Assembly (NCBI RefSeq): GCF_019320115.1
Contig: NC_089593.1
Span: 8,938,386-9,002,385 of the forward strand
Source of the DNA: Miscanthus floridulus
Taxonomy: Eukaryota; Streptophyta; Magnoliopsida; Poales; Poaceae
Length of the DNA: 64,000 bases
Direction of reading: 5' to 3'
Part shown: positions 1 through 59,533 of the stretch, piece by piece
Position numbering within the stretch: position 1 is the first letter of the stretch
Layout: the number at the start of each line of letters is the position of its first letter
Made by a program: the position numbers and the translations under genes
Notes under the pieces: generated by a model
Seen by the model: the letters and a program-made list of their open reading frames with translations, nothing else
Database searches by the model: none
What the model was told of the DNA's origin: nothing

Positions 1-1222
1 CAGACGATTTAGCAAACTTAAGCCCGTATAACCCGGTAGTCCGTGAAATCGCGAAGGATTTCAAACTAACTTTCCATTCCAGCCAAGATCGTAATAAGTT
101 TAGCGGTTCACCATCACATATTACATAAAAGTTCACACAGTCTCAGGTACATCAGAGTTTCAACATATTTATTACAAAACTAGTTCAAATAAAAGTAGCG
201 GAAGTCATTTGTTCAAACCACACACACTCACGCGGAGTTTTAATATAGTGCCAGCGAATGATCATCTCCAACAAAAGCATTAGACGAGACATAAGGAATG
301 ACCATGCCCATGGTCCTAAGCATCACCCATCGCAGGATAAAGGCAGTTGATACAGTAGCCGTAATACATCTACCCATCTGCAACAAGTGGGAATAAAACC
401 CTGAGTACGAGAAGGTACTCAGCTAGACTTACTCGACATAACCGAAAATAAGTGACACCAAGGATTATGAAGGGCTTTATAGTAGGGTAGCTGACTCATT
501 TGCAAAAGAAGCATTTTTAGCATTTCAAGAACCTTTCGAAAAGCATTATTGCCAAGTTAATTATTATTAACCTATTGACTAGATTTGCACCTATACTAGA
601 GTAAACATGTGATTAAGCAGATAATGATAACCAATGATCATTAAATAACTTCCATACTGTCATATTCATTATAACTGTCCAAGTGTTCCATAACATTTAC
701 TACGATGAAGTAACTCAAGTCAAGTGCTCACTATCCAGGAGCGATGGCGATTCGAATCGATTCCTAACCAGCTGGTGATTTATTCCTTACACAAACCTCA
801 CTCACCCGCTAAAGTGAGATATTGATCACCGAGTCAACTTTCCAGGAATCTCGAGTTTGCCAGGAACCACATGTACCTGAGGGCCGACCGACTGCACTTT
901 GGTCTTATCATCCCGCCCCCGTGTCCTACCACACCTGCTCCGGCACAGTGCGTTGCGGGCAATCTACTCGGCCCGAAAAATCTCCCAGCTTCGCGGTCGG
1001 AAGGTATTTTATCCGGCCAGCTAAATGTAAGGCATGCGTTCAACATGACTCGAGGCCCAACAACGGTCGGTCCCTTAATCGACACAGACGGAAAACACTA
1101 CAGTCCAAAACTCTGCAAGTCTCCGTCCGGTCTCAACTTCATTTAACACTTAGTTATACCATGACTTCATAGTCATCCAAGCAGATCCAGGTAACCACCT
1201 ATAGCTCGTAGGTGATAGGAAA

Positions 1223-1498
1223 TCACCCGACTTCTACCGGTCTAAGCCAGCTAAGCAATGACTCGACTGCGGATACCAGGGTAACAAGGATATAGTATAA
1301 CAAAGGTAAACAAGGTATAATGCAGCAACAGTTACAAACAACTCCTGAACATAATGCATCAATTAAAGTAAAGCATTTAATGAAATAATTGCAAACCGGG
1401 AGAAAAATGCTCCGGGGCTTGCCTCTCTCAAAGGAGCTCGGGCGGTGATCGGGGCACTCTGGAAGTTCCTCAACGTCCTCCTCGTCGGCTTCTGGCAC
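1223..1498 (-). pseudogene. LTR-encoded acidic peptide, copy in the 3' LTR, interrupted
   Basis: This is the same reading frame as the 129-codon ORF at 11814-12203 in the other LTR. A TAG just upstream of the EVPEADEED segment removes the N-terminal part here (CTG in the other LTR). The segment EELPECPDHRPSSFERGKPR is retained. Similarity to the ORF in solo LTR B is described under 26305-26601. Confidence 0.5.
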
Positions 1499-2489
1499 TT
1501 CCTGCTACTGCACCTTGAGCTGCTCCTCGGGCTCCTCGGGTATGACGACTAGGTTCTCGGTTTGCGATCCTGTATGATGCAATGCGCGTAAGTGATTATG
1601 CAAACGGTGCATCGAAGGAGATGAATGCAATGGATATGTTTAAATGCAAGGTAGTCAACATCATCCAAGAAACTATACTACAAGCACATGTCATCTACTG
1701 TATTCTCTTCTACTACTAATATGTTAAGTCAACATATCTTATGAAATGCTTCAAAGATACACCAAAGCTATTATTATTAACTAACCTTGTATTAAAGAGG
1801 ATTCTTTTAATTCCTTTTAAATTAGGGCTACAACAGAAATCTATATTTCTGGTGCTTATAAAAATAAAAAAAAAATTACAGTAGCATGGTACTACTCTAA
1901 GTAGACTACCATCAGATTTTCATGATAATTGAATGAGTGGATTAGCCTACACAAAAATCACAAACTATGGCATGATTTTGTACATAAAAATACTTTGAAC
2001 TGTGAAAAGTGTCAAACAACAGAATTAATATTTTTCCTAGGTTTTTCATAGCATACAATGACTGTACAAAAATTATCACATGCATGTTTTATACAAAGTT
2101 TGCTCTCTAGCAAAAATAACAAAAATCAGCCATTAAAGGTACTTGAACTACACCTCCAAAGTTTTCCACAGCACATGCATAAAACATATTTTTCCTAGGA
2201 AGTACATGACATAAGAAGATTAACAAACTTGAAATCATATTTTTCTGCAGACTATAGATTTTTCTATATATTTTTCAAGTTATCAGCAATATCCATGATT
2301 AAATAAAATCCTACAGAAAAGTATCCCAAAAATGACATGCAATAATTTTCCCAAGTAGATCTAACGATAAGGAACTTAGAAAAATTTGTTTCAACAAATT
2401 TGGAGCAAATTTGAGTACCCAAACATTTTCCAAACCATTTCTATTTTCAAATAATAAAGAGAAATTGAAAACGAATTATTTCTACTCCT

Positions 2490-3350
2490 ACTGGGCCGGC
2501 CCGTGGAAACGAACTGGCCCACGGCCACAACCGGCCTGCGCGGCCCGAGCGAAAGGGGAGCGCGGTGGCCTGGCAGGGCTTCGGCCCATGGCCGCTCGGC
2601 CTGGCCGGCCTGGCTGGCTGGCTGAGGCAGAGGCCTCACCGGTGTGCGCACTGGCGCGGCGGCGTGGCTCGGCCATGAGGCCGGCGGCCATCTCCGGCCA
2701 TGGCAGTGAGAGCTGGCGAGCGCACGGGATGTGCGAGGAGAAGGCGAGTGCGGTAGGGTAGCTACGCGAGGCTAGAGAAGAGAAGGAAGACGACTTCCAT
2801 GGCGGCCGAGCACGGCGGCGCCATGGCCGTCGGTGGCGAGGCGCGGGGAAGCTCAACCTGTGCTCGGAAGGCGGCGCAAGCTCGAGCGCGACTTGAAGGA
2901 GGGCGAGGTGGAGTTGCGGGCGGGAGGAATCGGGGAATGGTGCGGTGGTGCGGGAGCTCGACGCCGGCGGAGCTGCGGGTGCGGCGAGTGCAGAGCTTGG
3001 GGCTCTCAGCTCTGGAGGAGAAGGAAGGCAGCGTGGGCGGGAGTGAGCGAGCGCACGGGCACCAGCAGGTGTAGGCGGGCGCGTGGGCGCGGGGTCAGGC
3101 CACGGCTGCCATGCGGCGGGCGACGCTGGCACATGGTCGCCACGCAGCGGGAGTTCTATGCCGTGGTCGGCGCGTGGGCGCGCGGCGAGCAGGGGAACGG
3201 CGCGGGGCTAGGCCGAGGCGAGCGCAGCGTGGGATGGCGTGAGCAAGCCAGCGCGCGAGGTGGGCCGACGCGCGTGGGCGGGTTCGCTGGTGCGCTGGGC
3301 TGGCTTCGGCAGGCGGGCCAGAAGCGAGGCGGCGGCCCGCGAAGGAGAAA
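2490..3350. repeat. GC-rich block inside 3' LTR of element A
   Basis: A CpG-rich block of roughly 860 bp sits in otherwise AT-rich LTR, with reading frames open on both strands. The paired block in the 5' LTR is 13080-13950. In element orientation it lies several hundred bases from the LTR start, a position compatible with promoter or leader sequence. I recognise no protein in it. The long ORFs are best explained by high GC. Confidence 0.7.
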
Positions 3351-3880
3351 ATTCTTTTTTTCCAAATAAAATTTTCAAGGAATTTTTAAATGCCATCTTT
3401 CAAATATTATTTTGAGCAAGAAAATGACCTCTTTTGAAAATGTACCAAAAATAAAAGTTGTTTAGAATTTAATTCTCTACAACTTTGCTTTTATGACCAC
3501 AGCCAAATTCTTTCTAGATTTTTAATTGTAAGACCAAAGTCCACACTTAGCTCAAAACCCTAATTTTTGGAATTTATTTTTGGAGCCAAATTTTGAATTA
3601 ATTTGAATACAAACATTGCTCCAAAAATTGAACTAAACATTTCTAGATAATTTACAATAGTAGCCAAACATGTTTTACTAACCTAGCAAGAAAAATTCAG
3701 GGCAAAACAATTCTTAACAGGTGTATGCAACATTCAGGTTTCACGCATGTTTCAGATGTTTCAAAACAATGTTTCAATTGGTATGCACATGATTAAGCAT
3801 GTATGATTTGGATGCTTGATGATGCATGATATGCGTGATTTGCAGTGCCTAAATGTAGGCATAACACCGGGGTGTTATAG

Positions 3881-3893
3881 CCCTCCCCCCTTA
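3881..3893 (-). other. Polypurine tract of element A
   Basis: The plus strand reads CCCTCCCCCCTTA, a purine run on the minus strand immediately before the 3' LTR. This is the expected plus-strand primer site for reverse transcription and fixes the element orientation as minus. Confidence 0.9.
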
Positions 3894-3976
3894 TAAAAAT
3901 CTCGTCCCGAGATTTGGGTTACGAACCATTTGTTATAAAATTCTTCATAAGCTTTTTGTAGATACTCTCCTGTTTC

Positions 3977-6900
3977 CTAAGTTGCATCTCCCTCATTATG
4001 ATTATCCCACTGTATCTTGTATGTTTTCACCACACTATTCCGAGTAGCACGTTCCTTAGTGTCTAACACCTGGACTGGTTGCTCACGATACACCAAATCT
4101 GATTTGAGTTGGATACCTCGAGGTTCTATTCTTTCCTCCAAAACACGCAAACATTTCTTGAGATGTGATACATGGAAAACTAGGAAAACGGTGCTCATTG
4201 TCTCAGGTAACTCTAACTTGTAGGCTACCGGACCTCTTTGTTCCAAGATCTTGTATGGTCCTACGAATCTCATGGCAAGCTTTCTTCGGATTCCAAACCT
4301 TTTCTTCTTCATTGGCGTGACTTTCAGATAAACATAGTCACCAACTTCAAATGCAAGGGGTCTCCTTTTGTCTGCATAGCTTTTCTGACGTGATTGGGTA
4401 GCTTTCATGTTCTGCTGAATAATATGAACTTTCTTCTCGGCTTCTTCTACAAAGTCAATGCCATAATACCTTCTATCACCAGGCTTGACCCAATTCAATG
4501 GTGTTCTACATTTTCTGCCATATAAAGCTTCGAATGGGGCCATCTTGATGCTTTCTTGATAACTATTATTATAAGAAAACTCAGCTAACGGTAACCATGA
4601 CTCCCATGATCCCTTGGAAGACAATACACAGGCTCTTAACATATCCTCCAAAACAGTATTTACTCGTTCAGTCTGACCATCTGTCTGAGGATGATAAACG
4701 GTACTGCGAATCAAACTAGTTCCTAAGCCTTTGTGTAAATGTTCCCAAAAATGAGCCGTGAACTGTGAGCCTCTATCAGACACTATGGTCTTTGGTATAC
4801 TATGCAACCTCACAATTTCTGCGATATACTTCTTGGCATATTGAGGTGGTCGATAATCTGTTTTGACAGGCAAGAAATGAGCGGTCTTGGTAAGACGATC
4901 CACAATTACCCAAATCGAATCATGTCCTTTTGGGGTAGTGGGCAAACCCGTGATAAAATCCATACTGATATCGTCCCACTTCCAACTAGGGACTGATAAG
5001 GGTTGCAACATACCGGCAGATTTCATGTGGATGGCTTTCACTCGACAACATGTGTCACATCTGACAACATATGCTGTAATTTCTTTCTTCATTTTGGTCC
5101 ACCAATAACGAGATCTTAATTCTTGATACATCTTACTACTTCCGGGATGGATAGATAGCTTAGAAAGGTGAGCTTCATCCATGAGTTTATTCCTAAGCTC
5201 TCGATCCTTGGGAACCACAAGACGATTGTCAAACCACAACACGCCCTGTTCATCCACTTTAAAGTATTGAGATGGCTTTTCTTTTATTTTCTCTTTGATG
5301 TGGAATATCCCCTTATCAGTTTTCTGGCCTTCTATTATCTTACTTTCCAAAGAGCAACTAATCTGAATACTATGTAACACAGCAGGCTGTATTAGATCAA
5401 ACCCATTTTCAAGTAATGGCTGCACATTCAAGTAATGTGACTTTCTGCTCAAAGCATCTGCCACTACATTGGCTTTACCAGGATGATATTGCACATTCAA
5501 GTTGTAATCCTTTATCAATTCCAACCATCTATGCTGTCTCATGTTTAGCTCTGGTTGGGTAAAGATATACTTAAGACTCTTGTGATCCGTGAATATATTG
5601 CACACATTACCAAGTAGATAATGTCTCCAAATTTTTAGGGCGTGCACAACTGCAGCAAGTTCAAGATCATGTGTTGGATAGTTGACCTCGTGCTTTCTCA
5701 ATTGACGTGATCCATAAGCTATGACTCTCCTTTCTTGCATAAGAACACAACCCAATCCAGTCTTTGATGCGTCGCAAAACACATCAAATGGTTTCTCGAT
5801 ATCTGGTTGTGCTAGAACAGGAGCAGTGGTCAACAGTTTCTGCAAAGTGTGGAAAGCTGCTTCACACTCCTCTGTCCACACAAACTTGTGATCCTTCTAT
5901 AGGAGGCTTGTCATTGGTTTGGCAATCTTCGAGAAATCTGGTATAAAGCGACGGTAATAACCGGCTAGTCCTAAGAAACTTCTAATCTCAGGAACTATGG
6001 TTGGTGTTTTCCAATTCATAACTTCTTGCACCTTACTTGGATCGACTAAAACTCCATTCTCTGACAGAATGTGACCAAGGAAGGGAACTTCCTTCAACCA
6101 GAATTCGCATTTGCTAAACTTAGCATACAGTTGATGATCTCTAAGTCTGGTCAAGACAGTTCTTAGATGCTCTTCATGATCTTTCTCGTTCTCAGAGTAC
6201 ACCAGAATGTCATCGATGAACACTACCACAAATTTATCCAATTCTGGCATGAAAACTGTATTCATCAAAAACATAAAGTATGCAGGAGCATTTGTCAAGC
6301 CAAAAGACATGACAAGATACTCATACAACCCGTATCTGGTGGAAAATGCAGTTTTCGGTATATCCTGTGGCCTAATCTTAATATGATGATAATCGGATCT
6401 CAAATCTATTTTTGAGAACACCTTGGCCTTAGATAATTAGTCAAACAGAACATCAATATGTGGCAAGGGATACTTATTCTTGATGGTCACAACGTTGAGT
6501 GGCCTGTAATCTACGCACATTCTCAACGTGCCCTCTTTCTTCTTTTTCACAAACAAAGTGGGACATCCCCATTCAGACTTGCTTGGCCGAATAAACCCCT
6601 TTTTTGATAGATCTTCTAATTGCTTCATCAGCTCAGCTAACTCATCTAGAGGCATCCGATAGGGCCTCCTTGAAATCGGAGCTGTTCCGGGGACTAGCTC
6701 AATTCCAAACTCAATCTCCCTATCTGGCGGAAGACCAGGTAGCTCATCCGGGAATACGTCCGGAAATTCACACACTACCGGAATCTGATGAATAGGAATG
6801 ACTGCCGTAGCACATGTAACACTTATAAGGTCTGTTCTCCGAGGCAATGGTACTTGGAAAGTACCCTCACCTAGTGGATCCTTAAGGGTAAGTACTCAAC

Positions 6901-6991
6901 CTCCAATATCTATGACTGCTCCCTAATTCTTCATCCAATTCATCCCTATAATGACATCCAAGACTAACCCAGGCATAACTATCAAGTTCAC
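3977..6991 (-). pseudogene. Ty3/gypsy pol (RT, RNase H, integrase, chromodomain-like tail), nonsense-riddled
   Basis: Continues the gag frame with no frameshift. Reverse transcriptase spans about 6847-5900, with the [20 protein letters not shown] block and active-site FIDD. RNase H begins at about 5880 (FCDAS, LELAAVVHALKIW, TDHKSLKYIF). Integrase follows, with the zinc-binding H-H-C-C region (HLSKLSIHPG, CDTCC), a D-D-E core (SMDFITGLP, IVSDRGSQF, TDGQTERVN) and a GPY-type region (FVGPYKILE). The end (PVQVLDTKERATRNSVVKTY, then IQWDNHNEGDAT) is the chromodomain-like CR tail of Del/Tekay-type chromoviruses. In-frame stops lie at 6923-6925, 6896-6898, 6437-6439, 5897-5899 and 3977-3979. The last falls at the position usually occupied by the tail Trp. 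The element is non-autonomous as it stands. Confidence 0.93.
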
Positions 6992-8395
6992 TCAGAACTT
7001 CCTGCTACCTAATTCAAGGGTTGCCCCTCGAACCATCCAGTTGGTCAAAACATCAGCCCCTGCTGAACTTATACGGTACCCATACTCTAATTCTATGCAT
7101 AGTTGTCCATATTTCTGTGCAAATGCTTGACTCATAAAAGAATGCGATGATCCAAAATCAAATAGAACAACTATAGGGTTTTCATTGACAGGAAACTTAC
7201 CAGCAGTGACAGGCTCTCCCTCGGGAATTTCATCCACTGTTGTACTATGTACTCTAGCATTATAAGTCTGCTGCTTCTTCTTGGGTGGGTACAGACAAAA
7301 CCTTGAGAAATGGCCGGGTTGATCACAGTTACAGCAGGGTCCTCTTACTATCCCAGCAGATCCCATAGCTCCCTTGGAACTGCCTTGTACCGCAGTTGCG
7401 GCTGCTTTGTTGGGCTGTACTGCCATCTTGTATGGCTTTTGAGGTCCACAGAAATTCTGACTTCTTGGCTGAGGTGGCCGAAACCTAGCGCCAGGTGCCG
7501 ATGGGCGATATGGGGGACAACCTCCCATAGGGGCTCTAGCTTGAGACGGCCCACCTTCAAAGGCTCTCTTGCGTGTCTTGGCTACGGTGCTGGTGTTGTT
7601 ATTCTTCTCCTGCTTCAGATAGTCGCTGATGAAGTCATTGAATCTGACGCGGTTGTTGGTACCAACATGCTTCATCATTTTTGGATTGAGACCCCTCTTA
7701 AAACTGGCTATTCTTTTAGCATCTGTGTCAACCATGTCGGGAGCATAGCGACATAAGTTGTTGAAGGCATGCAGGTATTGCGTCATGGTTTTGGTGCCCT
7801 GGTTCAACGCCAGAAACTCTCCCAACTTCATCTCGGTCAGCCCTGGTGGAATATAGGCTCCACGGAAGGCCTCAGCAAACTCTCTCCAAGAAATCTGAGC
7901 ATTTGGAGGGAAGGTAGTGCGATGGTGCTTCCACCACATTCCCGCCAGTCCTTGCAATTGAAGTGTAGCATACTCCATTTTTAGAACCTCCGTCATCCTC
8001 AACACACGGAATTTATCTTCCATCGTGTTGATCCATTCCTCAGCATCGAGTGGCTCTGTTGCTTCCTTGAATACTGGCGGCCTGGTGTCCATGAAATCTT
8101 TGAAGCTGCTATATTGGTTCACTCCCATGCCACCACCTTGATTGTTACCACGTTGAACGTTGTTGGTGATGGTTCGAAGAAGATCCTCCATGTTCTTCTG
8201 GGATTGTTCCGCGTTGCGCTGACTCCCGAGCAGCTGTGCGAGGAACATCTTGGGGGTAAACGGGGGAGGAGGTGGCAAATGCGGTTCATGGGGAGGTTCA
8301 TTGTTGTTGCCGTGGTTTCCACCACCACCACCAGTCCCCGCACCGTTGGCACCAGGCTCAGCGGCCTCATACGTGGTTTGGCGAGTGTTTGTCAT
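6992..8395 (-). CDS. Ty3/gypsy Gag with retropepsin region, open for 467 codons
   Basis: The start is ATG at 8395. Glycine- and proline-rich N-terminus, then the capsid-like Retrotrans_gag domain (DTRPPVFKEATEPLDAEEWI through FKRGLNPKM), a CCHC zinc knuckle (CCNCDQPGHFSRFC) and a retropepsin segment. The protease site reads LFDFGSSHSFMS. The family normally has a D-S/T-G active site, so the Phe after Asp is unusual and probably damaging. The frame ends at TGA 6992-6994, inside the protease, but homologous pol continues in the same frame. The bases just upstream of the ATG (GCTAAAATATGTAG) could serve as a 3' splice site. The protein would package element RNA in the cytoplasm. Confidence 0.92.
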   Translation of the reverse strand: MTNTRQTTYEAAEPGANGAGTGGGGGNHGNNNEPPHEPHLPPPPPFTPKMFLAQLLGSQRNAEQSQKNMEDLLRTITNNVQRGNNQGGGMGVNQYSSFKDFMDTRPPVFKEATEPLDAEEWINTMEDKFRVLRMTEVLKMEYATLQLQGLAGMWWKHHRTTFPPNAQISWREFAEAFRGAYIPPGLTEMKLGEFLALNQGTKTMTQYLHAFNNLCRYAPDMVDTDAKRIASFKRGLNPKMMKHVGTNNRVRFNDFISDYLKQEKNNNTSTVAKTRKRAFEGGPSQARAPMGGCPPYRPSAPGARFRPPQPRSQNFCGPQKPYKMAVQPNKAAATAVQGSSKGAMGSAGIVRGPCCNCDQPGHFSRFCLYPPKKKQQTYNARVHSTTVDEIPEGEPVTAGKFPVNENPIVVLFDFGSSHSFMSQAFAQKYGQLCIELEYGYRISSAGADVLTNWMVRGATLELGSRKF

Positions 8396-8761
8396 CTACA
8401 TATTTTAGCAACAAGTAACGATTGAGTGAAGCTGTAATAATTACAAGTGAAGGAAAAATTATGCCGTACTGAATTTACTGGAGAAAATAAATTCATACAA
8501 TAAAACAGAGGCACAACAATCGCACCCCAATTAAAACAACAACACTTAATCGAATTACTTCAACGGCAAACATCGCGTCCATACAATCACATTGCCAGCA
8601 TACATACACTGGACTTTTTATGCGTTCAGATATCGCATTTGAAAATCAAGTTCCAACCACATGCCAAGTCTCATACGTTCGAAGCAACATACGATAGATT
8701 ACATGCCAACAAAAGAAATGTCATCGCGATGAGACCTAGATACTAGCGCAAGGCAACTAGC
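8396..8761. other. Spacer between the H3-tail ORF and gag of element A
   Basis: This 366-bp spacer has no supported ORF. The frame shared by the flanking ORFs contains further stops (TAA soon after the TAG of the upstream ORF), so simple readthrough from the H3-tail ORF into Gag is not possible. It could hold an intron or an internal leader. Confidence 0.6.
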
Positions 8762-9751
8762 CTACTCCTCGGGGCCATCATCGGGATCGGAGATGTCACC
8801 ATCGCCCCCAGGTGAAACTGTAGGCTCGTCCTCGTTGTCGTTGTCAACGTCCATGCCAGCGGCGTCTGGTGGAGCATATGGGCCAACCCCATTGTAGAGC
8901 ACATGAAACTCCTCGTGCAGGTAGCCATTGTATTCCTCTAGCTCATCGACCCTCTGTAGCAGAAGGTTTCTTGCGTTCCAGGCTTCATTTCTTTCTTGAA
9001 CCAGCTGTCCAATCATGCGGTCTGCATTGTTGTTGGCTTGAGTCAACGTATGCACTCGCTGCATAGCTCTATCACCTCTCTCAACCGCCTGATCTCTCTG
9101 TAAGTTCATATCAGCCAACTGCTCCTGCAAGCTAGCTATAGCACGTGCCTGTCTCTTCTTCTGCCTCTTCCCTTTTAGCTTATCCTCACTACGCAAGCCA
9201 GTCAAAGTCCAGTAGGTACTCTCAAGACCTTCATATGCTCTGATGGTGTCGAACATAGCACTCATTGCCTGGTTGTCGCTAGCCTGTCCTTCAGCTAGAC
9301 CTCTGACCAATGCACTTCCTTGAGGCTGAACCCAAATGGCATCACGAGGATCATCCCTAGGAAAAGTACCAGCTAGAGCTGCTGCAAGCTCACTGGGAAA
9401 TCTACTCATAATGTCCCTGATGACATGGAAGGCTGCTCCCTCTGCACCCTCAGCTAGAGTGCGACCCTCAAACTCCAAATGCCAACCATCCCAATCTGGA
9501 GCGTCACTGAGAGCAGAAACCGTGATTTCCACCACAGCGAGTCCATTCTCCGCTAACTGGCTCTCATTCCAAGAGTACACCGGCTCTTGACCCTCTGGGT
9601 ACCCCACATCATGGAGCACTCTCCAAAGCAGAGTTGGCATGCCAAACTCGCTCAAGAAGGTGTCCATGGTGCGGTGCTCCCTCAGGGCCAACGGACGTCG
9701 AGGTGCTCTTCCGCCGGTGGACTTACGGGCGGTCTGCTTCGTGCGGGCCAT
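8762..9751 (-). CDS. Extra ORF of element A: histone H3-tail mimic, coiled coil and acidic tail (329 aa)
   Basis: Intact frame upstream of gag. I place the start at ATG 9751 because the protein then opens exactly as histone H3 does, in strong context (GCTACAGATGGCC). Upstream in-frame codons lack an ATG near the frame start. After Met, residues equal H3 1-13 (ARTKQTARKSTGG), then R for K14, APR, R for K18, P for Q19, LA, after which similarity stops; the histone fold is absent. K4, K9, S10, T3, T6 and T11 are kept. Residues about 57-120 have a beta-beta-alpha look (AVVEITVSA, WHLEFEG, AAFHVIRDIMSRF), vaguely like a dsRNA-binding fold; that is speculative. Residues 191-203 are basic (KLKGKRQKKRQAR), a possible nuclear signal. 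Residues about 203-285 form a heptad-rich coiled coil. Residues 301-329 are acidic (DVDNDNEDE to DPDDGPEE). Function unknown; I infer a chromatin-facing accessory protein. Confidence 0.88.
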   Translation of the reverse strand: MARTKQTARKSTGGRAPRRPLALREHRTMDTFLSEFGMPTLLWRVLHDVGYPEGQEPVYSWNESQLAENGLAVVEITVSALSDAPDWDGWHLEFEGRTLAEGAEGAAFHVIRDIMSRFPSELAAALAGTFPRDDPRDAIWVQPQGSALVRGLAEGQASDNQAMSAMFDTIRAYEGLESTYWTLTGLRSEDKLKGKRQKKRQARAIASLQEQLADMNLQRDQAVERGDRAMQRVHTLTQANNNADRMIGQLVQERNEAWNARNLLLQRVDELEEYNGYLHEEFHVLYNGVGPYAPPDAAGMDVDNDNEDEPTVSPGGDGDISDPDDGPEE

Positions 9752-10527
9752 CTGTAGCAAAAATTCTTTCATTACCTCGGGGAAACATATTTTAGGTGAT
9801 ACAACTTTTATCAAAAGGAGATAATCAATTTATAAGGGGAGGAATGCCTGACATGAATGAAATGCATAAGTAACATGATGTATGTACGTGTCGTACGTTC
9901 TCACAAACTTAGGAAATAAATAATTTCTAACGACGAATTCGGTGGTATACAACGATCTCTCAATACGTAGCTAATACGTTCTACACGATAGCGTTGTTAT
10001 GTACCTGCAGAAGATTCATTTCAGCCCAAATTTCCAATGAATGCATAAAAGCAGTAAAGTTTTATCTACACGCTCTACACGAATCTCTAGATACGTGTAC
10101 AACGGTAGTAACTACCCGAACCATCGTCCTACTGACGGCATCACCTCAACAGACGGATGACCCATACATGAGATACCTTTGTAAAACATGCGTAGAACAT
10201 GTAATTACTCCAGCATCATATAAGCATTCACCCTAGATCGGCGGTGTATCCGATCATGCTCTCACAACTCACACTTACCGACGCGTAGAGGCAAATGATC
10301 CATTCATTACCACTCAAACAAGTGGCACTCATACAATAGCACGCCGTATGAGCGACGAAAGAGAAATATGATGCAAGAACCCTAAGTCAGTACTTAATTA
10401 AGCCACCTAAAGTCCTTAACTGGGCATAAAGGATATGATCACTGGCACACTTTATTGTTTTAAAATCACGTTTTCCAAATGCCTTTTTGTTTTAAATACA
10501 CTTGTGAACAGTAACACGCTAAACCAT
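9752..10527. other. 5' leader region of element A between PBS and first ORF
   Basis: 776 bp without a supported ORF. The last bases before the H3-tail ATG, on the minus strand, read ATTTTTGCTACAG, a good plant 3' splice-site match. The leader may therefore be partly intronic. No donor could be fixed by eye. Confidence 0.55.
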
Positions 10528-10539
10528 GCTCTGATACCA
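10528..10539 (-). other. Primer binding site of element A (initiator tRNA-Met type)
   Basis: The minus strand reads TGGTATCAGAGC, the standard complement of the plant initiator tRNA-Met 3' end. It is two bases inside the end of the 5' LTR and confirms minus-strand orientation. Confidence 0.95.
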
Positions 10540-11813
10540 GCTGTAACAGAACCGACCAATTATACAAAATTAAGTAAGAAAATCATCCGCCAGGGCAGAC
10601 AATTTAGCAAACTTAAGCCCGTATAACCCAGTAGTCCGTGAAATCGCGAAGGATTTCAAACTAACTTCCATTCCAGCCAAGATCGTAATAAGTTTAGCGG
10701 TCACCATCACATATTACATAAAAGTTCACAGTCTCAGGTACATCAGAGTTTCAACATAGTTATTACAAAACCAGTTCGAATAAAAGTAGCGGAAGTCATT
10801 TGTTCAAACCACACACACTCACGCGGAGTTTTAATATAGTGCCAGCGAATGATCATCTCCAACAAAAGCATCAGACAAGACATAAGGAATGACCATGCCC
10901 ATGGTCCTAAGCATCACCCATCGCAGGATAAAGGCAGTTGATATAGTAGCCGTAATACATCTGCCCATCTGCAACAAGTGGGAATAAAACCCTGAGTACG
11001 AGAAGGTACTCAGCTAGACTTACCCGACATAACCGAAAATAAGTGACACCAAGGATTATGAAGGGCTTTATAGTAGGGTAGCTGACTCATTTGCAAAAAG
11101 AAGTATTTTTAGCATTTCAAGAACCTTTCGAAAAGCATTATTGCCAAGTTAATTATTATTAACCTGTTGACTAGATTTGCACCTATACTAGAGTAAACAT
11201 GTGATTAAGCAGATAATGATAACCAATGATCATTAAACAACTTCCATACTGTCATATTCATTATAACTGTCCAAGTATTCCATAACATTTACTACGATGA
11301 AGTAACTCAAGTCAAGTGCTCACTATCCAGGAGCGATGGCGATTCGAATCGATTCCTAACCAGCTGGTGATTTATTCCTTACACAAACCTCACTCACCCG
11401 CTAAAGTGAGATATTGATCACCGAGTCAACTTTCCAGGAATCTCGAGTTTGCCAGGAACCACATGTACCCGGGGGCTGACCAACTGCACTTTGGTCTTAT
11501 CATTCTGCCCCCGTGTCCTACCACACCTGCTCCAGCACAGTGTGTTGTGAGCAATCTACTCGGCCCAAAAAATCTCCCAGCTTCGCGGTCAGAAGGTAGT
11601 TTATCCGTCCAGCTAAATGTAAGGCATGCGTTCAACATGACTCGAGGCCCAACAACGGTCGGTCCTCAATCGACACAGACGGAAAACACTACAGTCCAAA
11701 ACTCTGCAAGTCTCCGTCCGGTCTCAACTTCATTTAACACTTAGTTATACTATGACTTCATAGTCATCCAAGCAGATCCAGGTAACCACCTATAGCTCAC
11801 AGGTGACAGGAAA

Positions 11814-12203
11814 TCACTCGACTTCTACCGGTCTAAGCCAGCTAAGCAATGACTCGACTGCGGATACCAGGGTAACAAGGATATAGTATAACAAAGGTAA
11901 ACAAGGTATAATGCAGCAACGGTTGCAAACAACTCCTAAACATAATGCATCAATTAAAGTAAAGCATTTAATGAAATAATTGCAAACCGGGAGAAAAATG
12001 CTCCGGGGCTTGCCTCTCTCGAAGGAGCTCGGGCGGTGATCGGGGCACTCCGGAAGTTCCTCAACGTCCTCCTCGTCGGCTTCTGGCACTTCCTGCAGCT
12101 GCACCTCGAGCTGCTCCTCGGGCTCCTCAGGTATGACGACTGGGTTCTCGGTTTGCGATCCTGTATGATGCAATGCGCGTAAGTGATTATGCAAACGGTG
12201 CAT
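11814..12203 (-). CDS. LTR-encoded acidic peptide or exon (129 aa), uncharacterised
   Basis: Open from ATG 12203. It carries an acidic stretch (PEEPEEQLEVQLQEVPEADE) and the motif ELPECPDHRPSSFERGKPR, then a hydrophobic, Cys-rich end that may be out of the real coding part. A 3' splice-site-like CATACAG precedes GATCGCAAACC inside this ORF. Solo LTR B has ATATAG before GATCGGAGG at the equivalent place. An internal LTR exon starting GS(Q/E) is therefore plausible. I do not recognise a family. Nucleotide similarity between the two LTRs also extends into noncoding sequence, so selection on the peptide is not demonstrated. Confidence 0.4.
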   Translation of the reverse strand: MHRLHNHLRALHHTGSQTENPVVIPEEPEEQLEVQLQEVPEADEEDVEELPECPDHRPSSFERGKPRSIFLPVCNYFIKCFTLIDALCLGVVCNRCCIIPCLPLLYYILVTLVSAVESLLSWLRPVEVE

Positions 12204-13079
12204 CGAAGGAGATGAATGCAATGAATATGTTTAAATGCAAGGTAGTCAACATCATCCAAGAAACTATACTACAAGCACATGTCATCTACTGCATTCTCTT
12301 CTACTACTAATATGTTAAGTCAACATATCTTATGAAATGCTTCAAAGATACACCAAAGCTATTATTATTAACTAACCTTGTATTAAAGAGGATTCTTTTA
12401 ATTCCTTTTAAATTAGGGCTACAACAGAAATCTATATTTCTGGTGCTTATAAAAATCAAAAAAAATTACAGTAGCATGGTACTACTCTAAGTAGACTACC
12501 ATCAGATTTTCATGATAATTGAATGAGTGGATTAGCCTACACAAAAATCACAAACTATGGCATGATTTTGTACATAAAAATACTTTGAACTGTGAAAAGT
12601 GTCAAACAACAGAATTAATATTTTTCCTAGGTTCTTCATAGCATACAATGACTGTACAAAAATTATCACATGCATGTTTTATACAAAGTTTGCTCTCTAG
12701 CAAAAATAACAAAAATCAGCCATTAAAGGTACTTGAACTACACCTCCAAAGTTTTCCACAGCACATGCATGAAACATATTTTTCCTAGGAAGTACATGAC
12801 ATAAGAAGATTAACAAACTTGAAATCATATTTTTCTGCAGAATATAGATTTTTCTACATATTTTTCAAGTTATCAGCAATATCCATGATTAAATAAAATC
12901 CTACAGAAAAGTATCCCAAAAATGACATGCAATAATTTTTCCAAGTAGATCTGACGATAAGGAACCTAGAAAAATTGTTTCAACAAATTTGGAGCAAATT
13001 TGAGTACCCAAACATTTTCCAAACCATTTCTATTTTCAAATAATAAAGAGAAATTGAAAACGAATTATTTCTACTCCTA

Positions 13080-13950
13080 CTGGGCCGGCCCGTGGAAACG
13101 AACTGGCCCACGACCACAACCGGCCTGCGCGGCCCGAGCGAAAGGGGAGCGCGGTGGCCTGGCAGGGCTTCGGCCCATGGCCGCTCGGCCTGGCCGGCCC
13201 GGCTGGCTGGCTAAGGCAGAGGCCTCGCCGGTGTGCGCACTGGCGCGGCGGCGCGGCTCGGCCATGAGGCCGGCGGCCATCTCCGGCCATGGCAGTGAGA
13301 GCTGGCGAGCGCACGGGATGTGCGAGGAGAAGGCGAGTGCGGTAGGGTAGCTACGCGAGGCTAGAGAAGAGAAGGAAGACGACTTCCATGGCGGCCGAGC
13401 ACGGCGGCGCCATGGCCGTCGGTGGCGAGGCGCGGGGAAGCTCAACCTGTGCTCGGAAGGTGGCGCAAGCTTGAGCGTGACTTGAAGGAGGGCGAGGCGG
13501 AGTTGCGGGCGGGAGGAATCGGGGAATGGCGCGGTGGTGCGGGAGCTCGACGCCGGCGGAGCTGTGGGCGCGGCGAGTGCAGAGCTTGGGGCTCTCAGCT
13601 CTAGAGGAGAAGGAAGGCAGCGCGGGCGAGAATGAGCGAGCGCACGGGCACCAGCAGGTGTAGGCGGGCGCGTGGGCGCGGGGTCAGGCCACGGCTGCCG
13701 CGCGGCGGGCGACGCCGGCACATGGTCGCCACGCGGTGGGAGTTCTCTGCCGTGGTCAGCGCGTGGGCGCGCGGCGAGCAGGGGAACGGCGTGGGGCTGG
13801 GCCGAGGCGAGCGCAGCGTGGGATGGCGTGAGCAGGCCGGCGCGCGAGGTGGGCCGACGCGCGCAGGCGGGTTCGCTGGCGCGCTGGGCCGGCTTCGGCA
13901 GGCGAGCCAGAAGCGAGGCGGCGGCCCGCGAAGGAGAAAAATCTTTTTTT
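13080..13950. repeat. GC-rich block inside 5' LTR of element A
   Basis: Counterpart of 2490-3350. A 302-codon open frame on the minus strand (13077-13985) and several on the plus strand coexist here. The composition (Ala, Pro, Arg, Ser) and the overlap of frames argue for GC-driven openness rather than genes. In element orientation it could hold promoter or leader sequence. Confidence 0.6.
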
Positions 13951-14468
13951 CCAAATAAAATTTTCAAGGAATTTTTAAATGCCATCTTTCAACTAATATT
14001 TTGAGCAAGAAAATGACCTCTTTTGAAAATGTACCAGAAATGAAAGTTGTTTAGAATTTAATTTTCTATAACTTTGCTTTTATGACCACAGCCAAATTCT
14101 TTCTAGATTTTTAATTGTAAGACCAAAGTCCACGCTTAGCTCAAAACCCTAATTTTTGGAATTTATTTTTGAAGCCAAATTTTGAATTAATTTGAATACA
14201 AACATTGCTCCAAAAATTGAACTAAACATTTCTAGATGATTTACAATAGTAGCCAAACATGTTTTACTAACCTAGCAAGAAAAATTCAGGGCAAAACAAT
14301 TCTTAACAGGTGTATGCAACATTCAGGTTTCACGCATGTTTCAGATGTTTCAAAACAATGTTTCAATTGGTATGCACATGATTAAGCATGTATGATTTGG
14401 ATGCTTGATGATGCATGATATGCGTGATTTGCAGTGCCTAAATGTAGGCATAACACCGGGGTGTTATA

Positions 14469-16507
14469 GAGGTCAAGGGAGTGACTTGCACTATACTCCA
14501 ACTGATTTAAACTCCTTGAAACTGCTTGCAATTCAATAGTCTCAGCTGATTACTTCTTATTCCAACTAGTTTCAATCACTTGCTGCTGCTTGTACTCTGA
14601 TTGCAACTTATTTGGACCCTTGTGTAAGTTCTTTTCTTTCATTGAAACTCCTTTAGACCAAATTTATATTTCTCATATTTACTGATTCTTCATGACCAAC
14701 TTGAGAGCTAACTCAATCTTGTTGCCACAATGCAATCCAATTCCATTCAGTCAGTTTTCAGATTCTATCATCCTCAGAAAGGAAAAAAAGAAATCCATAT
14801 CTCTCAGACCACTAGCCCAATATGCATGAAATTTGGTAGAGATCTTCATCTATGAGTCCTCTAACTTCTCTAAAAAATGTAGCTCATTTGAACTCCATTT
14901 GGTTAGTGAAAATAATTTTCTACCAGAACTGCTCAAATCTGAAACTGCACTGTTGAAGCTGACAGAAACCAACTCAAAACTGATTTTCTTCAAAACCAAT
15001 CTTCATACCAATTGTACAGAAATAAGTACTAGATGTGTATAGCATGCTCACAAAGTTTCAGGTCAATTTATCAGTATTTGAATCTCCAAATCTATGCTTG
15101 AAGGCAGTCAACTCAGATTTACAATTTTCTGGACAGATTTGATGATCGATGATTCTTCTTCTTTTCCTGTCCAATCTTTGAGGTGATTTCAGTTGAGAAT
15201 ACATATAAGATGTTGTATCCATTTAGTCCTCTCATCAACACTCATAATCTTGTGAATTCTTTCTGTATAGCTTATTCAGATCAACCTCAAACTTGATTCA
15301 AGCGAAACTGAAACTTTTGATCTAAATGGCCTTTAGCAGCAACATCTTTCTTTAGATGAAGAATAACCTTTAAGCTTGTGAATTAAATTAGCACAACATC
15401 TTCTTATTGATTTTCTATGGATAAGCTCAATCACAAGAAGACATTAGTAACACAAGCACTAGTTTTCCATTTAGTAACCATTTATATGTAGATGACAAGT
15501 GGGTTACCAAAATGGAGAAACCTCATAACATGGACTAAATCTCCCTTGATGCCTCATGCACATTCTTTTGAGTGGAATGGAAATGTAAATGTGCATGGTT
15601 GGTCATTTAAGTCCAAAGGGCATATTTAAGCCATATTATGGTGAGTGGCTAACATAGACAAATCTAATTCAAATTAGCTAGAGAGAAAATACATTACATG
15701 ATTTTGGATTGATAGCCTTCATATAATAGCACACTCTATTTGAGAAACATATTCTCATTTAGTGAGACTACATAAATCTTTTAGAGAGAAAGATTAGTCT
15801 CACAACTCTAGCCATAGATTAAAGTCTCTTTTTATAAGTGCTCTAAGTATTTGAATTTCTCACATAGCACTTTATTCATTTAAGAACTTGAGATTTTCAC
15901 TCTATGTCTAGGTCATGGCAATAATAGTATAATCAATTTGAACTATGCCAAGAGATACTCACAACCATTATAGCATGTAGATGCCCATAAGATGAGAATG
16001 AGAATTTGGCAATCTAACATATGACAAGATTCCATCAAGTAAGAAGTTCTCGACTTGTGAGTAATAAGTCCCTTTACTTGACTTGAGCTTGATTCTTTAT
16101 TCTTGGCCATTTTGAAATCTACTTGTATCCTCCAATATGTACCAAGATTCCAAATCCATCAAACCAACTCATAATGTGCACGAACATAAACTTGCTTCAT
16201 CTTGTTTTTCTTGGTTTGAAGTAAACAAAGGAAAGTCAAGTTATCTATGTTGCTTGGTGTGGATGATCAATTCAATTTTGATCATGTTTCTATTCTATGA
16301 CCAGCAACCAATGAATATCCTCAAGTGCTTCTATTATCCTACGTGGCTACACAAGACACAAAGGAGTTTAGTTTTAAATAAATTGCACTTGAGATTTTGA
16401 TGTTACCACCCTTCTTGATTGTAATGGATGAGGTGGTCTTTTCATCTTCATCTTGCACATATGAAGGTTGTAGATTTGACCATCAACTAGAGTGGAGTCA
16501 GCTGCTA
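14469..16507. other. AT-rich non-coding DNA, probably the 3' part of decayed copia element C
   Basis: No ORF longer than about 90 codons and no recognisable domain. It lies between the outer end of element A and the first coding remnant of C, on the side where the 3' noncoding part and 3' LTR of minus-strand C should be. No copy of the C LTR was found here, so it was probably lost or displaced beyond element A. Confidence 0.4.
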
Positions 16508-44812: not shown

Positions 44813-45717
44813 TGAAAGGTCCTAATGGCTAGAGGGGGGTGAATAGCCTAATAAAAATTTCTACAACAATACTTAACAAAATAGTTTGATAGTTATGAGG
44901 TGAAGCAAGTGTTGCGCTAGCCTACTCAAAATGCAAGCCACCTACCATAATTCTAGTTTAGATAGTATCTATTCACACAATAGCTATGACACTACCCTAT
45001 GTTAGTGTGCTCTCAACGGCTAACTAAAGAGCCACACCAAGCAAGCAAGCAAGCTTTTACAACTAGCTACACTAAAGAGCTTGACAACTAGTTTACGGTA
45101 ATATAAAGAGAGTGATCAAGAAGATTATACCGCCATATAGATGAAGGAACCAATCAATCACAAGGAAGAATAACAATGAAGACCAATCACCTCGGAATCA
45201 ATGATGAACACAATGATTTTTTATCGAGGTTCACTTGCTTGCCGGCAAGCTAGTCCTCGTTGTGGCGATTCACTCACTTGGAGGTTCACGCGCTAATTGA
45301 GTTCACACGCCAAACCCTCAATAGGCTGCCGCACAACCAACACAAGATGGGGATCACATAAGCCATGAGCAATCCACTAGAGTACCTTTTGGCTCTCCGC
45401 CGGAGAAAGGTCAAGAACCCCTCATAATCACCACGATCGGAGCCGGAGACAATCACCACCCTCCGCTCAACGATCCTCGCTGCTCCAAACCATCTAGGTG
45501 GCGGCAACCACCAAGAGTAACAAGCGAATCCCACAGCGAAACATGAACACCAAGTGCCTCTAGATGCAAACACTCAAGCAATGCACTTGGATTCTCTCCC
45601 AATCTCACAAAGATGATGAATCAATAATGGAGATGAGTGGAAGGGCTTTGGCTAAGCTCACAAGGTTGCTATGTCAATGCAAATGGCCAAAGGTATGAGC
45701 TTCAACCAGTCATGGGG

Positions 45718-45726
45718 CTTAAATAG
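45718..45726 (-). promoter_or_regulatory. TATA box of LTR1
   Basis: CTATTTAAG on the minus strand, preceded in element orientation by ACAACGGTTC (Myb-core AACGG) and the palindromic motif array. The same arrangement occurs in LTR2 (54119-54127) and LTR3 (62519-62527). Confidence 0.55.
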
Positions 45727-45774
45727 AAGCCTCCACGAAATAGAACCGTTGTACCCCTTTGCTGGGCACAATGC

Positions 45775-46190
45775 GGGCTGACCGGACGCTTCGATCATGT
45801 TGACCAGACGCTGGACCTCAGCGTCCGGTCGCCCGACAACAGCCATGTGTCCCGATCTCAATGGTCACTAGAGTTGACCGGACGCTGCACTATAACTGAT
45901 CGGACACTGAGCCACCAGCGTCCGGTCATTTCTAGTAAAGTTCTAGAAATATATTTTGTCCACCGGACGCGCCCGGTCATGCACGACCGGACCCTGCCAG
46001 CGTCCGGTCAGAGACCCTAGCCTCTATGTGCTGCCCGACAACAGGACCGGACCCTGCCTCCAGCGTCTGGTCGTTGAATGACACAGTGTCCGGTCGTTTG
46101 ACCGACGCTAGCGTCTCCGCTGTTACAACTGACCGGATACGCCGGTTCCTCTAGGACCAGCGTCCGGTCACCTTGTGACCAGCGAGACCA
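45775..46190. repeat. Inverted-pair motif array in LTR1 (TGACCGGACGCTG / CAGCGTCCGGTCA)
   Basis: About a dozen exact or near copies of a 13-bp motif in both orientations, irregularly spaced, just upstream of the TATA box in element orientation. Diverged arrays occupy the same place in LTR2 (about 54180-54600), LTR3 (about 62580-63000) and LTR4 (about 63520-63650). The likely role is a U3 enhancer; this is inference. Confidence 0.8.
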
Positions 46191-46676
46191 ACTCCTTTTC
46201 ACCTCTAACTTCTTCACCCTTGCCCAAATATGCCAACCACCAAGTGTATCACCTTATGCACATGTGTTAGCATATTTTCACAAACATTTTTAAGGGTGTT
46301 AGCATTTCACTAGATCCTAAATACATATGCAATGAGTTAGAGTATCTAGTGGCACTTTGACAACCGTATTTCGATACGAGTTCCACGCCTCTTAATAGTA
46401 TGGCTATCAAACCTAAATGTGATCACACTCTCTAAGTGTCTTGATCACAAAAATAAAATAACTCCTATGGTTTATACTTTTGCCTTGAGCTTTTTATTTT
46501 TCTCTTTCTTCTTTCCAAGTCCAAGCACTTGATCATCATCATGGCATCATCATCATCATGCTATGATCTTCATTTGCTTCACCACTTGGAGTGTGCTACC
46601 TATCTCGTGATCACTTGATAAACTAGGTTGGCACTTAGGGTTTCATCAATTCACCAAAACCAAACTAGAGCTTTCA

Positions 46677-46695
46677 ATCTCCCCCTTTTTGGTAA
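46677..46695 (-). other. Polypurine tract of element D
   Basis: The plus strand reads ATCTCCCCCTTTTT directly after LTR1, a purine run on the minus strand beside the 3' LTR. Confidence 0.88.
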
Positions 46696-47836
46696 TTGAT
46701 GATAACCCTTTGACAAAGATATGAATTGAAATTCAATTTAATCCATGTTGCTTGTACACGCATATTTACCATGTGTAAAAGGATATGGACAAGTTTCATG
46801 AACCCCAAATGATAGCAATTGCTCCCCCTACATATGTGCTAAGATTTTGGATTGTAACTTGCACATATGCTTAGATTGGAAATATAGGAGACAATGTCTA
46901 CCAAATGATGCTAAGGTATAAAAGATGGACCTTTAAAGCGTGATACCAATCGGAGTGCACCATTATACCATCCTTAGCACCATGGTTAGCTCTATACCAC
47001 TTGAAAACATACTTTGAAAAGATACCACTTGTAAAAACTTACTTGGAAATGAAAGTTATCTAGTAATTTCATTTTATCATTCAATCTTACAACTAGCATA
47101 CATCACACAAGCATGGATATTTTAAATTCAAAACTTGTACCATGCAAGTAAACATATGAAATGCACATTCAAATACACCATACAAGTTCATGAGCTTGCT
47201 CCCCCTATTTGTGTGCTCAACTTTTTAATTGATCCATTTCCTTTGTCATATTTCTTCCCTTATGTCAAGTTCTCCCCCTATCACTTGTATCTTTATTTCT
47301 CTTCCCCTTTGTGTTGTCTTTTCACTATCTTTGTGCACTATTTCTTCCCCTTTGTCATCAATGACCACAAAGGTTTAAATTATAGATAGGTTGAAATTAT
47401 CAATGTCAATCAATGGGGTGAGGATCATTTTCCTAAATTTGGTCCAATCTAGATCATTTACCAAAGATATTTAACTTAGTTTGATCCAAGGACAAGCTTC
47501 TTCACACCTCCAAATAAGGGTTATCTTGTACCATGTTGAGTTAAACACTTAGAGCTCATTTTCTAGATTAAACACTAGGTTTACAAGCCCATAAACATGT
47601 CATATGCTATCACTAGATCAAGTCAAGTATAGAAGCAATAGTGATACCATATAAACATCAAATCTATTTGATTTTCATGAATGAGCCTAATAAAATAGAA
47701 CCACTTGAAAGGTCCTAAAAATTGAAAATGTGACTAGATGCACTAAACATGTCCTTAGCAAGGATATATGTCATACCAATCAACTTTTACCTTGGTTAGC
47801 TTGAAGGAGAGGCATGTCATATGAGTGAGGGGTGCA
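46696..47836. other. 3' noncoding part of element D
   Basis: 1.1 kb between the polypurine tract and the pol stop. No ORF above about 85 codons with any recognised domain. No envelope-like gene was seen, although some SIRE elements carry one in this position. Diverged but alignable with 55110-56287 of element E. Confidence 0.6.
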
Positions 47837-50800: not shown

Positions 50801-51040
50801 ATCATATAATTGAGCCATGGATAGCAAATTGAAGTTTAAGCTCTCTACTAGCAACATATTGGATATGCTCATATCATTAGATATTGCAATCTTACCAAGT
50901 CCTTTAACCTTTCCTTTGCCATTGTCACCAAATGTGATACTATCATAACCATCATTGTCATTGGTGTTGATTGAGTTGAACATTCTTGCATCACCGGTCA
51001 TGTGTTGAGTACACCCACTATTAAAAACCCAATGCCTTCA
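47837..51040 (-). pseudogene. Copia Pol of element D (protease, integrase, RT, RNase H)
   Basis: Order on the minus strand: a protease remnant reading VFNSGCTQHMTGD, where the catalytic Asp is Asn, preceded by a TGA; GAG-pre-integrase (LWHRRLGHVGMKQLNRL); integrase D-D-E (HMDLFGPT, VRSDNGSEF, NSLVERKNRT); RT (WVFKNKQDQDG, KARLVAQGYTQVEG, MDVKSVFLNG, IYVDDIIFGS); RNase H (YSDSDYAGCKVERKSTSG, ALSTAEAEYIS, VRHHFIRD, DIFTKPLD). One TAA at about 49127 (after GLDFG) splits an otherwise open frame into 49130-51001 and 47837-49108. It would be inactive because of the protease change and the stop. Confidence 0.93.
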
Positions 51041-51071
51041 TCTGACTTTGTAATTGACCTACAAAAGAAGA

Positions 51072-53156: not shown

Positions 53157-53198
53157 TTTTACACCGAAGGTTGTTAAGCCTTAAATCACGGTGACCTC

Positions 53199-53211
53199 GG
53201 CTCTAATACCA
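53199..53211 (-). other. Primer binding site of element D
   Basis: The minus strand reads TGGTATTAGAGCC, the initiator tRNA-Met type site with one change, two bases inside LTR2. Confidence 0.9.
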
Positions 53212-53213
53212 CT

Positions 53214-59200: not shown

Positions 59201-59490
59201 TTAGAGCCATCTACACTTATGATCTCTACATCATCCACACCAAATATGCACTTGAAACCAAGATCACGCAATTAAGCTACCGACAAAATGTTGAAGTTCA
59301 AGCTCTCTACTAGTAGCACATTGGAAATGCTCAAGTCATTGGATATTGCAATCTTACCAAGCCCTTTGACCTTACCTTTGTCATTGTCACCAAATGCGAT
59401 ACTATCAATCCCATTGCTCTTGCTTTCATTGATTGAATTGAACATTCTTGGATCACCGGTCATGTGTTGTGTGCACCCACTATCAAGCAC
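56288..59490 (-). pseudogene. Copia Pol of element E (protease, integrase, RT, RNase H)
   Basis: The protease active-site region (MLDSGCTQHMTGD, 59490 downward) is intact here, unlike in D. Then 57736-59271 with GAG-pre-integrase (LGHVGMKQLNKLIKHDLVRG) and integrase core (VRSDNGSEFKNTR, NGLVERKNRT). RT is split into 57250-57699 (GTKWVFQNKQDQDV, YQMDVKSAFFNG) and 56651-57259 (IYVDDIIFGSTNQ). RNase H is 56288-56644. Lesions: a stop after NILSVA at 59272, a stop near 57735, a frameshift near 57300 within RT, and a stop at about 56645 before ALSTTEAEYIS. Inactive. Confidence 0.92.
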
Positions 59491-59533
59491 CCAATGCCTT
59501 CCTCTAGCTTTATAATTTACCTACAAAAGAAGA

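What the first reader, a model, noticed from the sequence alone, without database searches (positions are those of the whole stretch)
8762..9751. Retrotransposon ORF that begins with a histone H3 tail
Seen: after Met the protein is identical to H3 residues 1-13, then R for K14, APR, R for K18, then LA at H3 positions 20-21, after which similarity ends. It keeps the K4 and K9 methylation sites with their R2/T3 and R8/S10 context, but replaces both nearby acetylation sites (K14, K18) by Arg. The histone fold is absent; instead there is a basic stretch, a coiled coil and an acidic tail. Known: H3 tails are read and modified by SET-domain enzymes, chromodomains and PHD fingers, and H3K9 methylation silences plant retrotransposons. 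Inference: the element may use a free or multimerised H3 tail as a decoy substrate for silencing enzymes, as a ligand for its own integrase tail, or to enter chromatin complexes. I know of no described system of this kind, but I could not search.
Basis: partly seen in the sequence, partly recalled or inferred. Interest (0 to 1): 0.95.

Follow-up and report, generated by a model that had tools for sequence, protein, structure and literature searches.

The report
Retrotransposon protein bearing histone H3 tail
A grass jumping gene makes an extra protein whose first 13 residues copy the histone tail that cells mark when silencing such elements, and distant relatives keep this copy, so it may be a decoy or docking tag, although this has not been tested.

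Summary
The 329-aa minus-strand ORF at 8762-9751 starts MARTKQTARKSTGGRAPRRPLA: H3 1-13 exactly, K14 and K18 to Arg, no histone fold. It lies between 5' LTR and gag of a Ty3 element with LTRs of at least 3.87 kb, the place of 'ORF0' in grass Retrosat2/RIRE3/RIRE8 (Tekay) elements. Ten ORF0-like database proteins also carry the tail (one named grass, Aristida; others unnamed); it is far better conserved than the bodies (mean identity 80% against 28%, 55 of 55 pairs; 7 of 10 were found through the tail, a bias). Lys is kept at position 9 in 11 of 11 and at 4 in 10 of 11. H3 similarity in grass chromovirus extra ORFs was, as I recall, reported in 2011; a weak DRBM-like match in 2024. I found nothing in print on the tail as a conserved K4/K9 mimic joined to such a domain and a long helix. 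Most likely it is a nuclear anti-silencing or docking factor; mechanism untested. dN/dS was impossible: the genome search did not complete.

The parts
8762..9751 (-). ORF0 (5' extra ORF), 329 aa, intact
9686..9748 (-). H3-like tail, protein residues 2-22 (H3 1-21; K14R, K18R, Q19P)
9752..9754 (-). CAG directly before the ATG, acceptor-like after a T-rich stretch; a Gln stands before the Met also in P0018, P0035, P0053 (4 of the 5 rows with a residue there; P0026 has Met)
   Evidence: splice role is inference
9386..9652 (-). predicted dsRBD-like domain, residues 34-122
9143..9181 (-). basic patch KLKGKRQKKRQAR, residues 191-203 (NLS-like, by eye)
8891..9196 (-). long predicted helix, residues 186-287, read as coiled coil (no coil predictor run), with RNEAW and HEEFHVL motifs shared by part of the relatives
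8765..8851 (-). acidic C-terminal tail, residues 301-329
10540..14468 (-). 5' LTR (downstream edge set by the PBS, approximate)
10528..10539 (-). primer binding site TGGTATCAGAGC (tRNA-Met type, recalled)
1..3879 (-). 3' LTR, cut by the window edge; 97.3% identical to the 5' LTR
6992..8395 (-). gag and start of protease (Retrotrans_gag, RVP_2)
5897..6421 (-). reverse transcriptase piece of the broken pol
3977..5881 (-). RNase H, integrase, SH3_Tf2-1 piece of pol
3926..4093 (-). chromodomain-like end of integrase, interrupted by a stop
   Evidence: weak

Best explanation
ORF0 is an accessory nuclear protein of a grass Tekay-type Ty3 retrotransposon that acts against, or docks on, the host silencing machinery. 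Shown from sequence or prediction: it starts as H3 does (Met-Ala), so ordinary Met removal would expose the same A1-R2-T3-K4 end; it keeps K4 and K9; K14 and K18 are replaced; a dsRBD-like module, a long helix, a basic patch and an acidic tail follow. Inferred: the helix is a coiled coil that makes dimers or higher oligomers presenting several H3 tails that cannot be acetylated at 14 and 18; these occupy or recruit host H3K4/H3K9 readers and methyltransferases, while the dsRBD-like module, which lacks the usual RNA-binding motifs, docks on Dicer-like/DRB proteins or on itself. The net effect would be less silencing of the element's RNA or chromatin.
Against: No binding, methylation, expression or localisation data. 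7 of the 10 relatives were found through the tail, and the full-length match of P0018 covers only 12% of the query, so conservation is overstated. Of 17 full-length hits only 3 include the tail region, all 3 H3-like; 13 begin downstream of it and P0017 has an unrelated start, so loss is not excluded there. P0016 has lost T3, K4, Q5 and R8. P0054 and P0059 have a one-residue insertion and a Lys at or near position 14, against a fixed loss of K14. No dN/dS. dsRBD match is structural only: model of P0001 has mean pLDDT 64, pTM 0.34; no Foldseek E at or below 0.001 and the top Foldseek row is a chloroplast ribosome chain, not a dsRBD; no Pfam dsrm match seen; P0035, P0054 and P0059 seem to lack the domain by alignment.
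Confidence: 0.4

Rival explanations
1. Exon capture kept for expression. The element took the first exon of a host H3 gene with its 3' splice site and start codon; the tail is conserved because this DNA or RNA serves splicing, translation start or nuclear import, not because of H3 mimicry.
For: CAG directly before the ATG after a T-rich stretch; 22 ATGs in the 809 nt upstream (10560-9752), which makes plain scanning unlikely; Gln before the Met in 4 of 5 rows with a residue there. That some plant H3.3 genes carry a 5'UTR intron near the ATG is recalled.
Against: K4 and K9 stay Lys while K14 and K18 do not in the 9 rows without insertion, although Arg would serve import equally; amino acids are kept in bodies mostly diverged to about 20-30% identity. 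Splicing is not shown.
Confidence: 0.27
2. Targeting tag. The tail is methylated at K9 by the host, and K9me readers then carry ORF0, with element RNA or integration complex, into heterochromatin, so that it guides integration rather than fights silencing.
For: K9 in 11 of 11 with T6 and T11 fixed; the element has a chromodomain-like integrase end, weakly supported; the ORF0-bearing relative FRetro3 took the place of centromeric elements in Oryza brachyantha (PMC3485330 section 3).
Against: Retrosat2 and its other homologues are described as dispersed and not concentrated in specific regions (PMC3485330 abstract); no physical link between ORF0 and integrase is known to me.
Confidence: 0.2
3. 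Passive relic. The tail is an inherited leftover of one gene capture, without function.
For: Capture of host pieces by plant Ty3 elements is known (passage in PMC5408684). ORF0 is intact in a copy whose ORF1 has 6 stops, but by my arithmetic only about 1.3 stops would be expected in 329 codons, so intactness is no evidence of use.
Against: A relic should decay at least as fast as the body; the reverse is seen in 55 of 55 pairs (with the stated bias).
Confidence: 0.1

Closest known systems
ORF0 / 5' extra ORF of grass Tekay (Del) chromoviruses: Retrosat2, RIRE3, RIRE8, FRetro3, ZMsat2, Sorsat2 (PMC3485330)
   Same: Position upstream of gag, long LTRs, fast-evolving ORF0 (abstract and sections 3, 9, 10, 14 read)
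   Different: 'histone' occurs 0 times in that main text; it assigns enzyme-like functions by homology modelling. Direct ORF0 comparison was not possible, as the sequences are not held. LTR ends differ: TATAACACCCCGG here, TGTCACACCC in Retrosat2 and RIRE8.
H3-similar extra ORFs of Poaceae chromoviruses (Steinbauerova et al. 2011, Genetica, doi 10.1007/s10709-012-9654-9)
   Same: As I recall its abstract: part of the chromovirus extra ORFs, found in Poaceae, showed partial similarity to a histone H3 gene and were ascribed to transduction or recombination
   Different: Paper not held; I cannot tell whether it notes the K4/K9 pattern. The mimic reading, the P0001 and P0053 models and the conservation contrast are from the present calls.
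DRBM-like Tekay 5'aORF proteins (PMC11728184, 2024)
   Same: Maize and sorghum Tekay 5' ORFs matched a DRBM protein by Foldseek (TM 0.35-0.37, E 0.04-0.25); RNA-silencing modulation proposed
   Different: 'histone' occurs 0 times; no H3 tail and no protein-binding type of dsRBD in what I read (abstract, section 2.5, passages).
Viral histone mimics: influenza NS1 ARSK, SARS-CoV-2 ORF8 ARKS, HDV S-HDAg (review PMC10208167, passages)
   Same: Non-histone protein of a parasite carrying an H3-tail motif
   Different: The first two are short motifs; here 13 exact residues stand at the start of the protein. The review's text has 0 occurrences of 'plant' and of 'transpos'.
VANC anti-silencing proteins of Arabidopsis VANDAL transposons (PMC10398659, abstract)
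   Same: Works-like model: a transposon accessory protein counters epigenetic silencing
   Different: VANC binds noncoding DNA of VANDAL copies; no H3 tail is mentioned in the abstract.
Retrotransposons that captured DNA methyltransferases (PMC5890265, abstract)
   Same: Capture of a host chromatin gene by retrotransposons
   Different: Captured an enzyme, not a histone tail.

Membership tests
Tekay/Retrosat2-type Ty3 chromovirus with ORF0 | LTRs over 3 kb | tested here: met
   3,881-column alignment, 97.3%
Tekay/Retrosat2-type Ty3 chromovirus with ORF0 | extra sense ORF between 5' LTR and gag | tested here: met
   PBS 10539-10528, ORF0 9751-8762, gag from 8395
Tekay/Retrosat2-type Ty3 chromovirus with ORF0 | Ty3 order gag-PR-RT-RH-INT | tested here: met
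   Pfam matches in order; ORF1 broken by stops
Tekay/Retrosat2-type Ty3 chromovirus with ORF0 | chromodomain at the integrase end | tested here: inconclusive
   No Pfam chromo match at E up to 1; weak match to a Clr4 chain, E 0.062
Tekay/Retrosat2-type Ty3 chromovirus with ORF0 | RT phylogeny within the Tekay clade, ORF0 homology to Retrosat2 | not tested
   Reference sequences not held
Histone H3 | H3 N-terminal tail | tested here: met
   Residues 1-13 identical
Histone H3 | histone fold | tested here: not met
   No PF00125 match at E up to 1
dsRNA-binding domain proteins | alpha-beta-beta-beta-alpha fold | tested here: met
dsRNA-binding domain proteins | sequence profile (Pfam dsrm) | tested here: not met
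   No match listed at E up to 1 for P0001 or nine other rows (the list of P0054 was cut at 25 of 62)
dsRNA-binding domain proteins | GPxH loop and KKxAK helix motifs for RNA contact | tested here: not met
   0 of 11 proteins have either; P0010 and P0018 are partial; motifs recalled
Histone mimics of parasites | H3-tail motif in a non-histone protein | tested here: met
Histone mimics of parasites | bound or modified by host H3 machinery | not testable with these tools
   needs peptide or in vivo assay

The most novel reading that the evidence does not exclude
A lineage of grass retrotransposons has kept, under selection, a bona fide free-N-terminal H3 tail (K4 and K9 kept, K14 and K18 in most members made non-acetylatable) on a coiled-coil, dsRBD-like scaffold, a two-headed decoy that engages both histone-tail readers or writers and the Dicer/DRB machinery to escape transcriptional and RNA silencing.
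Probability: 0.27. Interest if true: 0.92.

Novelty: new variant of a known kind. Interest (0 to 1): 0.62.

Why it matters
How plant retrotransposons evade H3K9 methylation and RNA silencing is largely open, and few anti-silencing proteins are known to me. A conserved H3 tail on an element's own protein would be the first histone mimicry by a plant transposable element that I know of (searches showed none in the parts of the listings displayed, which were capped; one search returned no paper). It turns the question into simple peptide-binding, methylation and deletion tests.

Tried and rejected
Chance match: rejected (13 exact residues, 10 further proteins). Histone gene or pseudogene: rejected, no histone fold. 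Unique fusion in one copy: rejected. Intactness of ORF0 in a copy whose ORF1 has 6 stops: not significant by my arithmetic (about 1.3 stops expected in 329 codons), so not used. Relatives in viral contigs (2 and 74 pattern matches) and genome contigs (14 pattern matches): none confirmed by tblastn, though each scan used few short patterns; the H3-tail DNA pattern in viral contigs: 0. BFVD structure search: 0 matches with E up to 0.001. Rfam: 0 matches at gathering score in the window.

Rows dropped: of 35 hits I kept 4 (P0010, P0026, P0035, P0039) as ORF0-like, judging by tail plus body, helix or acid tail, by eye; the other 31 (histones, fungal and other proteins, and P0023, P0028, P0033, whose bodies I could not place) were left out of all counts. 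Of 10 I kept seven (P0026, P0035 and P0039 again, and P0053, P0054, P0058, P0059) and dropped three with a Pfam histone domain. Of 17 I kept P0010, P0016 and P0018 for tail counts; 14 do not show the tail region. Notebook corrections: the entry that 49 of 50 rows are dsRBDs was too exact (most rows are, by title); the entry that 8 of 11 were found by the N-terminal search should read 7.

Full report
What is there. The window is from a plant genome, most likely a grass (inference): Ty3 and copia-like elements and a lectin-receptor-kinase-like ORF are present (the naming of the last two is by eye). Positions 1-14468 hold one Ty3 element on the minus strand: LTR copies at 1-3880 and 10596-14469 with 97.3% identity, a primer binding site at 10539-10528 that puts the 5' LTR edge near 10540, gag, RT, RNase H and integrase matches in Ty3 order, and a chromodomain-like integrase end with only weak support. 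The 3' LTR runs off the window. LTRs differ by 86 transitions and 10 transversions over 3,873 compared columns, K2P 0.025, about 1 My at an assumed rate of 1.3e-8 (rate recalled); the transition excess fits decay of methylated DNA (inference). ORF1 has six in-frame stops. ORF0 is open.

The tail. ORF0 reads MARTKQTARKSTGGRAPRRPLALRE. H3 1-13 is exact, K14 and K18 are Arg, Q19 is Pro, L20 and A21 are kept. PDB H3 peptides match, best E = 3e-5 over residues 1-23.

Relatives. A full-length search found 17 proteins. Only three include the region before the Met of MPTLL: P0010, P0016 (37% identity over the whole query) and P0018; all three carry the tail (ARTKQTARKSTGE, ARRRLTAHKSTGG, ARTKQTAHKSTGG), though the match of P0018 covers only 12% of the query and so is mainly the tail itself. 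Of the other 14, 13 begin at that Met or further in and P0017 has an unrelated start, so they neither support nor oppose it. Two searches with N-terminal regions added P0026 (Aristida adscensionis, the only named grass), P0035, P0039, P0053, P0054, P0058 and P0059. With P0001 this makes 11. These proteins tend to share an architecture, tail, variable body, helical C-terminal part and acidic end, although P0010 and P0018 are cut or broken and the end of P0058 is unclear. Sources other than Aristida are unnamed, so 'grass' is inferred.

Conservation. Over all 55 pairs the 24-residue start is more alike than the rest, mean 0.80 against 0.28. Because 7 of the 10 relatives were found through the tail, this is biased upwards. 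Less biased: P0001 against P0016, 16/24 against 112/295, p = 0.008. In P0058 no shared word with either query covers K9 (one covers K4), yet K9 is there with changes around it (Q5N, A7P, S10R). Across 11: K9 11, K4 10, A1 11, R2 10, T3 10; K14 is Arg in 9 of the 9 rows without an insertion, K18 never Lys in those 9; the other two, P0054 and P0059, read TGPKGVPR and so have a Lys at or near 14. P0016 has lost T3, K4, Q5 and R8. K4 and K9 staying Lys while K14 and K18 mostly do not is hard to explain by a need for positive charge alone, though K14R may be one inherited change.

Expression. Before the ATG stands TTTTTGCTACAG|ATGG; 22 ATGs lie in the 809 nt upstream, 10560-9752. Of the five rows with a residue before the tail Met, four have Gln there, P0026 has Met. 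I infer, and have not shown, that ORF0 is made from a spliced RNA whose acceptor abuts the start codon, perhaps captured with the H3 exon.

Mechanism. I favour a nuclear anti-silencing or docking factor: multimerised free H3 tails engage H3 readers or writers, and the dsRBD-like module engages Dicer/DRB proteins (confidence 0.4). Rivals are exon capture kept for expression (0.27), targeting of integration (0.2), and a relic (0.1). Binding to the element's own chromodomain is less likely: type II chromodomains lack the first and usually the last cage residue (PMC6317226 passage), and Tekay elements typically have type II (PMC11728184 passage). That the element's own piece has Pro and His at two cage places is by eye; the one weak PDB alignment does not reach the first place.

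What is known. ORF0 of Retrosat2, RIRE3 and RIRE8 is described; its authors found ORF0 only in grasses and evolving faster in amino acids than ORF1 (Ka 0.257 against 0.078; PMC3485330); that text never says 'histone'. A weak DRBM resemblance of maize and sorghum Tekay 5' ORFs was published in 2024 (PMC11728184). H3 similarity of chromovirus extra ORFs in Poaceae is, as I recall, in the abstract of Steinbauerova et al. 2011, which is not held; [quoted passage not shown] So the raw resemblance is probably not new. I found no paper on the tail as a conserved K4/K9 mimic, nor on its union with the dsRBD-like domain and helix (searches; capped listings, and passages of the papers named).

Verdict. 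Observation confirmed; interpretation partly supported; the resemblance probably known, the conservation contrast and architecture are new evidence here. The largest gap is codon-level selection, which needs DNA of other copies.

Noticed in passing
proteins P0024, P0027, P0029, P0046, P0052: A family of non-histone proteins, two from named fungi (Talaromyces, Paecilomyces), begins with the same H3 tail (Arg at 14 in 5 of 5) followed by an unrelated body; P0024, the only one scanned, has no Pfam match at E up to 0.01.
   Followed up: partly
P0025, P0050 (Podospora), P0034, P0038 (Oleoguttula), P0048 (Cryoendolithus): H3 tails fused to F-box (P0025, P0050), AAA/DUF7025 (P0034) or unplaced bodies (P0048 not scanned); Arg at 14 in 5 of 5, but the query carried K14R, so this is biased.
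   Followed up: partly
P0021, P0022, P0030, P0031, P0040, P0044: H3-tail-headed proteins of unknown bodies (no Pfam match for the five scanned, all but P0022) from Tara, ENA, JGI and other sources; origin unknown.
   Followed up: partly
window 44813-64000: Long direct repeats spaced by about 8.4 kb with copia-like gag, integrase and RT ORFs (by eye): successive copies of a copia element or a tandem duplication.
   Followed up: no
window 9752-10560: ORF0 leader with 22 upstream ATGs; six donor-like sites in 9752-10700, which hints at leader splicing.
   Followed up: partly
P0002-P0009, P0011-P0015: Predicted proteins of close relatives begin at the Met of MPTLL (or its variants) or further in, never at the tail; gene-caller choice or real loss of the tail cannot be told apart without DNA.
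   Followed up: partly
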